Virus record (IMG/VR): IMGVR_UViG_3300021957_000115
Location: 1 to 38,096 of that record
From: a virus
Direction: 5' to 3' (one strand)
DNA length: 38,096 nt
In this document: piece by piece, positions 4,024-26,093 of the stretch
Position numbering within the stretch: the first letter of the stretch is position 1
Layout: each line of letters starts with the position of its first letter
Notes under the pieces: model-generated
The model's input: only the letters and a program-made list of their open reading frames with translations
Database searches by the model: none
Told to the model about the DNA's origin: nothing
Program-made: the position numbers and the translations under genes

Positions 4024-5229
4024 TTAACTATTTAACCAGATGTATCCCTTGTCATCGCCCGTTGCGAGCCATGTTTCAAACTCTGCGGAACCTATGTTGC
4101 CGCCGTATGAGATAACCCCCGTTGCGGTTGTGGCGAGGGAATCTACAAACGCGATCAATGCCGCTTCGGTCAGGTCGTTGTCACCGATGTCGGAGCCTAC
4201 TGCTCCATAATACTCAAAGCTAAGGTCAACGCCCGTTGCTAGTAGAGAGGTCAAGGAGTTGTTGTAGCAATACAGAAGGGTCAATGCCGTCAAGCCCGAA
4301 GCATCAAGTGAGGTCAAGGAGTTTTCGTAGCAATACAGAGTGGTCAATGCCGTCAAACCCGAAACATCGAGTGAGGTCAAGGAGTTGTTGTTGCAAAACA
4401 GAGTGGTCAATGCCGTCAAGCCCGAAGCATCAAGTGAGGTCAAGGAGTTGTTGTAGCAAAACAGAAGGGTCAACTCCCCTTTCTTGCCGCTAGAGGCACT
4501 GGTAGCACTCCAAATGTAAATTTCCGTGGGTGCGCCGCCATTGTGTGGGATGGATAGATAAACGCTGGTATCTGCCGCAATGGCTCCATAGACAGGTGCG
4601 CCTCCGTCCACTGAGTAACAGATGCCCGTAGCCGACTCCGTGCCATCATGTTTTACCGTGACGGATAAGTTGCTGGTCTTTGTGCTGACCATTCTGACGA
4701 TACCTGCTGGGTTCCCTGCTGGTATGTCGGAGAGTTTCGCGTTTTTACTGCCCCCGTCTACAGTGACGTTAAATTGCCAACTGGTAGGCAAAGATTCCCC
4801 TCCCCCTCGATACTCCATCACCTGCCCCGTGTCCTCGGTCTTATAAACGGTGCCGACTGCCACACCTGTCAGGGCATAGGCGGCTTCTTTGTTGGCGATA
4901 GAGGTTACACCCTCTTGAAAGGATACAAACTTGTCTGGATGGGTCGAAGGAAGATCTCCAGCATTAGCACCACCCGCAGCAACACGCCACGAAGCACCTT
5001 CTGCATAGACGATCTCACCCTCTGAGTATGACTTAGATGAGTCGATAGGTTCTGCGTCTTGCTTTGCCTCAAGCTCTGAAAATTTATCAAGAATAGATTT
5101 AGCGGCCAAGGCTTTCTTTGATTGCAAAGAATCAATCCACTTAGCGTCACCACCAAGGTTGTCGGTTATCTTCTCTAAAATATCAGAATCTGTATCGGTT
5201 TTATGTGGAAGGGGATCAGGATGTGCCAT
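4024..5229 (-). CDS. Fibre-like protein with leucine-rich repeats
   Basis: A 401-residue protein. Residues 60-105 look like a fibre/appendage attachment domain (Y-S-E-G-E-I-V-Y-A-E-G-A-S-W-R), residues 110-250 are beta-rich, and residues 258-341 hold four 21-residue leucine-rich repeats of pattern NNSLTSLDASGLTALTTLYC, the last one degenerate. The C-terminal ~50 residues form a separate domain. LRRs bind protein or glycan surfaces, so a receptor-binding or virion-decoration role is plausible. The repeats are nearly identical in DNA, unlike most ancient LRR arrays. The gene follows the capsid gene terminator and starts ATG 5229 with no SD. Confidence 0.75.
   Translation of the reverse strand: MAHPDPLPHKTDTDSDILEKITDNLGGDAKWIDSLQSKKALAAKSILDKFSELEAKQDAEPIDSSKSYSEGEIVYAEGASWRVAAGGANAGDLPSTHPDKFVSFQEGVTSIANKEAAYALTGVAVGTVYKTEDTGQVMEYRGGGESLPTSWQFNVTVDGGSKNAKLSDIPAGNPAGIVRMVSTKTSNLSVTVKHDGTESATGICYSVDGGAPVYGAIAADTSVYLSIPHNGGAPTEIYIWSATSASSGKKGELTLLFCYNNSLTSLDASGLTALTTLFCNNNSLTSLDVSGLTALTTLYCYENSLTSLDASGLTALTLLYCYNNSLTSLLATGVDLSFEYYGAVGSDIGDNDLTEAALIAFVDSLATTATGVISYGGNIGSAEFETWLATGDDKGYIWLNS
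4207..4458 (-). repeat. 63-bp tandem repeats encoding LRR units
   Basis: Four consecutive 63-bp units encode residues 258-341 of the fibre-like protein. The first three are almost identical in DNA, each containing the plus-strand words GTCAAGGAGTT and TCAATGCCGTCAA; the fourth has diverged. The period is a multiple of three, so unit gain or loss keeps the frame. Confidence 0.85.
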
Positions 5230-24311: not shown

Positions 24312-24707
24312 ATGAAAAAACTAAGTGAAGTATATAAGGAACTAGGGATTGCATTTACATTCCCAATCAAGATTGAAAACGAAGCGAGCAAAGTGACATA
24401 CTTCGAAGAAAGCAGCGACGGCTACTGGCACAAGTATGAGTATGACTCAGAAGGCAATGAGACCTACCACGAAACCAGCAACGGCTGCTGCTGGAAGAGA
24501 AAGTATGACTCAGAAGGCAATGAGACATACTACGAGAACATCCAAGGCTACTGGTATAAGAATGAGTATGACTCAGAAGGTAAGGAGACATACTCCGAGA
24601 ACAGCGACGGCTACAAGAAGGGAACACCGCGATCAGCCAAGACCTGCGAGGGTAAAGTTGTAGAGGTGGACGGCGTGAAGTATGAAATGAAAACAATCAA
24701 CAACTAA
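24312..24707 (+). CDS. YDSEGNET-repeat protein, copy A
   Basis: A 131-residue protein. After a 25-residue start (MKKLSEVYKELGIAFTFPI), residues ~33-96 hold three 21-residue repeats with core K-x-x-Y-D-S-E-G-N-E-T-Y, resembling YD/Rhs-type or similar phage accessory repeats, then a C-terminal cap V-E-V-D-G-V-K-Y-E-M. The last 231 bp are nearly identical to gene copy B. The function is unknown; repeat surfaces often bind a partner protein. Confidence 0.7.
   Translation: MKKLSEVYKELGIAFTFPIKIENEASKVTYFEESSDGYWHKYEYDSEGNETYHETSNGCCWKRKYDSEGNETYYENIQGYWYKNEYDSEGKETYSENSDGYKKGTPRSAKTCEGKVVEVDGVKYEMKTINN
24477..24707 (+). repeat. 231-bp direct duplication, left copy
   Basis: Matches 25863-26093 with only two mismatches by my reading. 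The offset is 1386 bp, and the copies flank a small gene and the tetrapeptide-repeat gene. Confidence 0.9.
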
Positions 24708-25011: not shown

Positions 25012-25764
25012 ATGAAAATACCAACACTGGAAGAAATATCAAAGGTTGCGACGTTTGGATATGACGAAGACGGAAAGCTAGTCTTAACAAAGTTGAAAAC
25101 TGACCTGATAGGCAACCACATAGGCAACCACATCGGCAACCGCGAAGGCATCCACGACGGCGACCACTACGGAAACCACTACGGCGACCATGTCGGAAAC
25201 CACTACGGCAACCACAAAGGAAGCCACTACGGCAACCACAACGGCATCCACGAAGGCGACCACGTCGGCAACCACGAAGGCAAACACAAAGGTAACCACT
25301 ACGGCGACCATGAAGGCTACCACATCGGCGACCACGTCGGCGACCATGAAGGCTACCACGTAGGCAACCATGAAGGCCACCACATCGGCGACCACGTCGG
25401 CGACCAAGAGGGCGACCACGAAGGCAACCACCACGGCGACCACAAAGGAAGCCACTACGGCAACCACCACGGCGACCACAAAGGAAGCCACTACGGCGAC
25501 CACTACGGCAAACACAAAGGAAGCCACTACGGCATCCACGAAGGCATCCACTGGGGCGACCACTACGGAAACCACATTGGCAAGCACGAAGGTAAACACG
25601 AGGGTAACCACGTCGGCAACCACGAAGGCGACCACGTAGGCAGCCACTACGGTGACCACTACGGTGACCACAGAGGCGACCACAACGGCATCCACGAAGG
25701 CGACCACGTAGGCTACCACGTCGGCAAACACGAAGGCAAAACTTACAACCCAAAAACAAAATGA
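25012..25764 (+). CDS. Tetrapeptide-repeat protein, 52 G-x-H-x units
   Basis: A 250-residue protein. Residues 1-33 form an ordinary N-terminal segment (starts MKIPTLEEISKVATFGYDED). Residues 34-241 are 52 contiguous tetrapeptides of pattern G-x-H-x, for example GNHI, GDHV, GSHY; 50 of 52 have His in position three (exceptions GNRE and GDQE). The end is GKTYNPKTK. His every fourth residue suggests a metal-binding or beta-helix-like fold, but I know no family. Start chosen at ATG 25012 over GTG 25009. The stop overlaps the start of copy B (ATGA). Confidence 0.85.
   Translation: MKIPTLEEISKVATFGYDEDGKLVLTKLKTDLIGNHIGNHIGNREGIHDGDHYGNHYGDHVGNHYGNHKGSHYGNHNGIHEGDHVGNHEGKHKGNHYGDHEGYHIGDHVGDHEGYHVGNHEGHHIGDHVGDQEGDHEGNHHGDHKGSHYGNHHGDHKGSHYGDHYGKHKGSHYGIHEGIHWGDHYGNHIGKHEGKHEGNHVGNHEGDHVGSHYGDHYGDHRGDHNGIHEGDHVGYHVGKHEGKTYNPKTK
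25111..25734 (+). repeat. 12-bp tandem repeat array (52 units)
   Basis: 624 bp with 12-bp periodicity. Frequent units are GGCAACCAC and GGCGACCAC followed by a variable codon. The position-three codon is nearly always CAC, whereas the last codon of each unit varies. Unit gain or loss keeps the frame. Confidence 0.9.
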
Positions 25765-26093
25765 AAAAACTAAGTGATACACTAAAAGAAATGGGAGTGA
25801 AATTTACCATCCCAATCAAGATTAAAAATGAAGCGGGCAAGGTGACATACTTCGAAGAAAGCAGCAACGGCTGCTGCTGGAAGAGAAAGTATGACTCAGA
25901 AGGCAATGAGACATACTACGAGAACATCCAAGGCTACTGGTATAAGAATGAGTATGACTCAGAAGGTAAGGAGACATACTCCGAGAACAGCGACGGCTAC
26001 AAGAAGGGAACACCGCGATCAGCCAAGACCTGCGAGGGTAAAGTTGTAGAGGTGGACGGTGTGAAATATGAAATGAAAACAATCAACAACTAA
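25761..26093 (+). CDS. YDSEGNET-repeat protein, copy B
   Basis: A 110-residue paralogue of copy A with one fewer 21-residue unit. The 18-residue starts are similar but diverged (MKKLSDTLKEMGVKFTIPI), while the last ~77 residues are identical to copy A. The start overlaps the stop of the tetrapeptide-repeat gene (ATGA), so the two are likely translationally coupled. Confidence 0.7.
   Translation: MKKLSDTLKEMGVKFTIPIKIKNEAGKVTYFEESSNGCCWKRKYDSEGNETYYENIQGYWYKNEYDSEGKETYSENSDGYKKGTPRSAKTCEGKVVEVDGVKYEMKTINN
25863..26093 (+). repeat. 231-bp direct duplication, right copy
   Basis: Nearly identical to 24477-24707; recombination between the copies would delete 1386 bp including the tetrapeptide-repeat gene. 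Confidence 0.9.

What the first reader, a model, noticed from the sequence alone, without database searches (positions are those of the whole stretch)
25012..25764. Protein made of 52 G-x-H-x tetrapeptides
Residues 34-241 are one uninterrupted array of four-residue units with Gly first and His third in 50 of 52 copies; the fourth position varies widely (Y, V, E, K, I, N). I know no phage or bacterial family of this kind. A histidine every four residues, with glycine at every turn, could stack on one side of a beta-helix-like rod and bind divalent metals or an acidic partner, or drive condensation. Only the 33-residue N-terminus and the short tail look like ordinary protein. The codons are highly biased at CAC and GGC, so the array may have expanded recently.
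Basis: partly seen in the sequence, partly recalled or inferred. Interest (0 to 1): 0.85.

Follow-up and report, generated by a model that had tools for sequence, protein, structure and literature searches.

The report
Phage histidine-core tetrapeptide-repeat rods
A phage gene encodes a protein of 52 four-residue units (glycine-x-histidine-x) that proves to belong to an uncatalogued family found in many unrelated phages, predicted to fold as a thin rod lined with histidines whose outer surface changes quickly, probably to bind some host or phage partner early in infection.

Summary
It is not an orphan. Scans of viral contigs gave 29 distinct array genes with 7 to 58 units, all starting with a 31-38-residue helix-plus-hairpin cap; eight of 17 contigs re-searched hold at least two. 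Pfam, NCBIfam, PADLOC and the PDB have no such family; PHROGs gives only a weak array-type match. AlphaFold2 predicts a beta-solenoid: two-residue strands (His-x) joined by Gly-[Asp/Asn] turns (pLDDT 76.5, cap 80-90), closest in shape to bactofilin and MpAFP beta-helices. Gly and His are frozen and synonymous sites change little, while positions 2 and 4 are highly diverse. A relative with 96% identical flanking DNA carries a re-shuffled array end. The genes mostly sit in early replication/recombination modules. Best reading: an early cytoplasmic beta-solenoid binding protein, acidic outside, perhaps a decoy for DNA-acting proteins. The function is inferred; metal binding is untested. The fold class is known; the repeat and family are new.

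The parts
25012..25764 (+). GxHx array gene, 250 aa plus stop
   Evidence: homologues
25012..25110 (+). N-terminal cap, residues 1-33 (helix 6-12, strands 13-17 and 23-28 in the model); same plan in all 29 homologues, under purifying selection
25111..25734 (+). 52 tandem 12-nt units coding G-[D/N]-H-x; predicted beta-solenoid
25735..25761 (+). C-terminal tail GKTYNPKTK, shared with L010/L093 and L011
24312..24707 (+). neighbour: 21-aa YDSEGNETYYENxxGYW repeat protein; homologue in Verrucomicrobia phage P8625 (51%) and two copies beside the arrays of L003
25761..26093 (+). second copy of the YDSEG repeat gene, start overlaps the stop of the array gene; absent from the near-identical relative L093
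27226..28673 (+). HNH endonuclease and exonuclease VIII-like (DUF3799/PDDEXK) genes downstream: early DNA-metabolism module

Best explanation
The protein is a member of a new family of phage early proteins that fold as a capped right-handed beta-solenoid rod. Each G-[D/N]-H-x unit is one short side of the coil: Gly-[D/N] makes the turn, His points into the core as a stacked ladder, position 4 points outward. The coil is probably four units (16 residues). The N-terminal helix and hairpin cap the rod. The exposed positions vary by unit loss, gain and reshuffling while the core is frozen, so the rod presents an acidic, quickly changing binding surface. I propose that it binds a host or phage protein in the cytoplasm early in infection, most likely as an inhibitor or decoy of a DNA-acting protein such as a defence nuclease or host recombination enzyme, in the manner of other acidic beta-helical DNA mimics. 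Shown here: repeat, family, cap, conservation pattern, net acidic arrays, gene context. Predicted: the solenoid. Inferred: inward histidines, coil size, partner binding, counter-defence role.
For: AlphaFold2 on a gap-free alignment of 24 members: pLDDT 76.5, cap 80-90, strand-strand-turn-turn repeated every four residues through the whole array; the full-length model agrees. Structural second look: bactofilin 6rib Z 10.6, rmsd 2.1, 87 residues; MpAFP 3p4g Z 15.1, rmsd 3.0, 217 residues. Residue ratios in those alignments fit about 16 residues per coil (inference). Over 779 units: Gly 779, His 722 with L/F/R/I among the main substitutes, position 2 D/N 67%, position 4 almost free but nearly lacking A, S, G, P. 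Diversity per codon base: Gly third 0.26 and His third 0.23 against 0.70/0.53/0.60 in codon 4 and 0.60 in base 1 of codon 2. L093, 96.5% identical over the next 536 nt, has about ten identical units, then units that differ only in position-4 codons (GTC to TAC, GTA to TAC) and fewer units. All 29 arrays are net acidic, -0.08 to -1.0 charge per unit. Neighbours: Erf annealase plus exonuclease directly downstream in L009, L046, L070; exonuclease VIII in L011 and here; exonuclease near L106; Erf near L072; primase-helicase in L044; phage RNA polymerase and SSB in L057 and L090; Cas4-type exonuclease and endonuclease in L047 and L075.
Against: Foldseek finds no significant match, so the fold rests on one predictor and on middling Z values. 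A core made almost only of Gly and His is unusual and might be unstable without a ligand. Identical position-4 residues are enriched at a lag of three units (z +4.2), which does not fit a four-unit coil. No defence or anti-defence family matches. Early-module location is common for small phage genes of any function. The array difference in L006 lies at a contig end and may be an assembly effect.
Confidence: 0.35

Rival explanations
1. Metal-dependent rod: the inward histidine ladder binds Zn, Ni, Cu or Fe, so the protein folds on, stores or withholds metal during infection.
For: 722 of 779 units have His at the same position; a polar Gly/His core would gain from metal; phage spike tips with His-bound iron are known (own knowledge).
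Against: Position 3 is replaced by L, F or I in stretches of L070 and near the caps of L022, L057, L068 and L026, as expected of a packing position; no metal transporter or metalloenzyme lies beside it. Not testable here.
Confidence: 0.2
2. Accessory scaffold of the phage's own replication or recombination machinery: the rod binds the annealase, exonuclease or primase encoded next to it.
For: Immediate, sometimes overlapping, position before Erf/exonuclease, exonuclease VIII or primase-helicase genes.
Against: The neighbouring enzyme differs between phages (Erf, RecE-like, Cas4-like, primase, RNA polymerase) while the cap stays alike; the fast-changing surface does not suit a conserved partner; some members lie near a small terminase gene (L004).
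Confidence: 0.17
3. Virion or tail component, like the G-N-[F/Y]-x arrays in cyanophage structural proteins.
For: The nearest GenBank phage look-alikes of the mixed-core member are cyanophage structural proteins, and one member weakly matches a tail-fibre PHROG.
Against: Matches cover the array only, not the cap; the gene lies among early genes, while terminase and endolysin lie on the other strand of the other half; members are small, without tail-fibre domains.
Confidence: 0.08
4. Nearly neutral by-product: a 12-bp repeat that expands by recombination and makes a disordered, dispensable protein.
For: Variable length (7-58 units), tandem gene copies, lineage-specific codon signatures.
Against: Gly and His stay fixed across arrays while exposed positions diversify beyond synonymous sites; the cap is under purifying selection; AlphaFold2 gives an ordered repeat.
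Confidence: 0.1

Closest known systems
Pentapeptide repeat proteins (PF00805; MfpA, Qnr, AlbG)
   Same: Short tandem units with consensus [STAV][DN][LF][STR][G] (PMC8145042); ours read as [DN]-H-x-G is the same pattern less the first residue. Right-handed beta-helix; acidic members mimic DNA.
   Different: Four residues per unit, not five; His in place of Leu/Phe; no PF00805 match; different cap.
Bactofilins
   Same: Best structural neighbour of the higher-confidence model (6rib Z 10.6).
   Different: No Pfam bactofilin match; bactofilins have a hydrophobic core and polymerise (own knowledge); ours has strict 4-residue repeats and an N-terminal cap.
MpAFP RTX-type calcium beta-helix (3p4g)
   Same: Long regular beta-helix made of short repeats, Z 15.1 with the full-length model.
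   Different: Nineteen-residue repeats with calcium-binding xGTGNDxUx turns and an ice-binding face (own knowledge); neither is in our sequence.
Cyanophage G-N-[F/Y]-x structural arrays (S-RIM2, C48C1)
   Same: Tetrapeptide units with Gly first and an aromatic third residue.
   Different: Part of large proteins; the match does not include the cap; irregular; only array-level similarity.
SSSVEAR and GDQL repeat proteins of other phages and prophages (MW202485, prophiGD102-1)
   Same: Small-unit repeat proteins in early regions, one of them close to recT and an exonuclease.
   Different: Different repeat and flanking domains; E-values of 1e-6 to 1e-12 are driven by low complexity.

Membership tests
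Pentapeptide repeat protein | At least eight contiguous five-residue units A(D/N)LXX | tested here: not met
   Strict period of four over 52 units; no PF00805 match among 29 members
Pentapeptide repeat protein | Right-handed quadrilateral beta-helix | tested here: inconclusive
   Beta-solenoid predicted; sides per coil only inferred; coordinates not available
Bactofilin | Bactofilin sequence family | tested here: not met
   No Pfam bactofilin match at E 0.1 in 29 members
Bactofilin | Right-handed beta-helix core | tested here: inconclusive
   VIA Z 10.6, rmsd 2.1 over 87 residues; no significant Foldseek match
Bactofilin | Filament formation | not testable with these tools
   Needs purified protein
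RTX / MpAFP-type calcium beta-roll | GTGND-type calcium-binding turns | tested here: not met
   Motif absent from the translation
GxxxG helix (FliH-like glycine zipper) | Score above the family cut-off; helical repeat | tested here: not met
   NCBIfam 18.2 bits against a cut-off of 192; model is strand, not helix
   29 distinct genes
DNA-mimic counter-defence protein | Acidic surface; binds a DNA-acting protein | tested here: inconclusive
   Net acidic in 29/29; binding not testable here

The most novel reading that the evidence does not exclude
Phages carry a repertoire of recombination-shuffled beta-solenoid binders whose core is a continuous stack of histidines, folded or locked by metal, and whose outer face is re-drawn between near-identical phages to follow changing host targets: a phage counterpart of a variable binding scaffold.
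Probability: 0.12. Interest if true: 0.88.

Novelty: new variant of a known kind. Interest (0 to 1): 0.62.

Why it matters
If right, a four-residue repeat is among the shortest units to build a beta-solenoid, and this one has a histidine core. That is a clear test case for protein design and metal-dependent folding. The family also offers a natural set of rods of 7 to 58 units with frozen cores and variable faces in early phage genes, where host-takeover and counter-defence proteins are often found, so partners could be sought directly.

Tried and rejected
Phage and plasmid GenBank look-alikes are low-complexity matches or unannotated frames (Kineococcus GSHP frame, Nocardia frame antisense to a region beside a DUF6745 gene, Streptomyces) and were set aside after inspection. 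The single GTDB hit L016 is a phosphatase-like protein sharing FGYDEDGK only; that scan used six peptide patterns and is no proof of absence from bacteria. Plasmodium P230 in the PDB is a GEEV repeat with no relation. FliH and TrAA12 matches are far below cut-offs or composition-driven. A diversity-generating retroelement was considered because position-2 codons look like AAC mutated at A, but His CAC codons, equally exposed, hardly vary. Antifreeze function was considered from the MpAFP match and rejected for lack of any regular flat face. N-cap scans found no cap joined to a different repeat. The N-cap alignment of all members was too diverse to scan. Foldseek against PDB and BFVD gave no match at E 0.001. 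Literature searches found no paper on such a repeat. The window's terminase has no match in GenBank phages, so the host is unknown; the P8625 link only hints at Verrucomicrobiota.

Full report
Observation. The ORF at 25012-25764 on the + strand reads 250 residues without interruption. Residues 34-241 are 52 tetrapeptides with Gly first in all and His third in 50. Shuffled versions of the protein never gave more than four strict units in a row against 27 observed. The window is a 38,096-base IMG/VR virus record with no end repeats. Its left half holds terminase and endolysin on the minus strand; the array lies in the right half among small early genes, upstream of an HNH endonuclease, an exonuclease VIII-like gene and a DnaB-type helicase.

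A family, not an orphan. A protein scan of viral contigs gave nine relatives at 52-75% identity. Altogether 29 distinct array genes with a recognisable start were collected. All begin with a 31-38-residue cap of the same plan: an acidic helix, then a hairpin ending in a motif like L-x-A-D-[LIF]-x-G, followed by 7 to 58 units. Eight of 17 contigs re-searched hold two separate array genes, some adjacent, some kilobases apart or on opposite strands, and L068 holds three. Pfam, NCBIfam and PADLOC contain no such family above their cut-offs. PHROG 22557, of unknown function, matches ten members, and in the window protein only weakly and over the array. Near-relatives of the window are rare in the collection: two exact-match scans with window DNA returned only L093 and L052.

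The frame is translated and the cap is selected. In the arrays the first two bases of Gly codons never vary, and His codons vary mainly in the third base.

Fold. AlphaFold2 on the full protein with a gappy alignment gave pLDDT 67.6 and a strand pair every four residues. On a nearly gap-free alignment of caps plus about 21 units, pLDDT rose to 76.5, with the cap at 80-90 and the pattern EE-- unbroken to the end. In both models the strand residues are His and position 4, and the turn is Gly plus position 2. Foldseek found no significant match, but VIA-align placed right-handed beta-helices at the top: MpAFP 3p4g, Z 15.1, rmsd 3.0 over 217 residues for the long model and bactofilin 6rib, Z 10.6, rmsd 2.1 over 87 residues for the short one. 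Left-handed hexapeptide helices aligned only with rmsd above 10, which suggests the model is right-handed. One observation does not fit: identical position-4 residues are over-represented at a lag of three units (z +4.2) and not at four.

Which way residues point. Over 779 units, position 1 is always Gly, position 3 is His in 722 with L, R, F and others making up the rest, position 2 is D or N in two thirds, and position 4 accepts almost any large residue but hardly ever A, S, G or P. In L070:3352-3897 and near the caps of L022, L057, L068 and L026, position 3 is often F, L or I. A position that swaps between His and large aliphatic or aromatic residues while its neighbours vary freely is best read as facing the core. 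Written as [DN]-H-x-G, the unit is the pentapeptide repeat [STAV][DN][LF][STR][G] (PMC8145042) without its first residue. That is a resemblance in pattern, not membership: the period is four and PF00805 does not match.

How the array evolves. Each array has its own codon signature: Asp and Asn are GAC/AAC in the window, L003 and L011, GAT/AAT in L009, L004 and L070, largely independent of contig G+C. This points to amplification from a founder unit in each lineage. Yet amino-acid positions 2 and 4 are far more diverse than synonymous sites of the same 12-mers: base diversity 0.26 (Gly third) and 0.23 (His third) against 0.70, 0.53 and 0.60 in codon 4. The closest relative, L093 (flank 96.5% identical over 536 nt), shares about ten units exactly, then has units that differ from the window only by a Val-to-Tyr codon, then a shorter, different set of units, then the same tail; it also lacks the YDSEG gene that follows the array in the window. 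L006 and L004, 99.6% identical, differ at the 3' end of their second array, but this lies at the end of the L006 contig and could be an assembly effect. Whole-codon changes without synonymous ones suggest reshuffling between units followed by selection on the outer face; short-read assembly error is a caveat.

Context. In L009, L046 and L070 the array gene is directly followed by an Erf-type annealase and a RecE/YqaJ-like exonuclease; in L011 by exonuclease VIII; in L106 an exonuclease and in L072 an Erf lie close; in L044 a primase-helicase follows directly; in L057 and L090 a phage RNA polymerase, an SSB and a primase-helicase; in L047 and L075 an endonuclease and a Cas4-type exonuclease. 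L004/L068 (near a small terminase gene), L022, L026 and L003 are exceptions or unclear. The enzymes differ, so a fixed partner among them is less likely than a function common to early genes. All 29 arrays are net acidic.

Mechanism. The best-supported account is a capped, right-handed beta-solenoid with a Gly/His core and an acidic, diversifying exterior, made early and acting in the cytoplasm by binding. A decoy or inhibitor of DNA-acting host proteins is my leading guess by analogy with MfpA/Qnr-type beta-helices and other phage DNA mimics; no tool result here shows a partner. Metal binding by the histidine core remains open and is easily tested. Confidence: family and repeat, near certain; solenoid fold, about 0.7; decoy or inhibitor role, about 0.35.

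Host. Unknown. The flanking YDSEG repeat gene has a 51% identical homologue, gp42, in Verrucomicrobia phage P8625, which infects a marine Puniceicoccales strain (PMC4642752); P8625 itself has no GxHx array.

Noticed in passing
window 24312-24707 and 25761-26093: Two paralogous genes with 21-aa YDSEGNETYYENxxGYW repeats flank the array; the same family lies in two copies near the arrays of L003 and as gp42 in Verrucomicrobia phage P8625, so two different short-repeat families travel together.
   Followed up: partly
window 4024-5229 (-), repeats at 4247-4473: A 401-aa protein in the left half has 63-nt repeats reading CYNNSLTSLDASGLTALTTLF, a leucine-rich-repeat-like array in a possible tail or receptor-binding gene.
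   Followed up: no
L070 5087-5335 (-): Possible small protein made of MALA/MAVA-type tetrapeptides beside GxHx arrays in the same contig; may be another tetrapeptide-repeat family or a chance frame.
   Followed up: no
L013 2338-3507 (MW202485): SSSVEAR/W repeat protein close to recT and an exonuclease: another short-repeat family in an early recombination module.
   Followed up: no
GxHx arrays of 25 members: Identical position-4 residues recur at a lag of three units (z +4.2) while position 2 does not; not explained by a four-unit coil or by simple amplification.
   Followed up: partly
L026 2509-2997 (-): Protein with VSRETMDNRG / VSRETMGN tandem repeats between two GxHx arrays of the same contig.
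   Followed up: no
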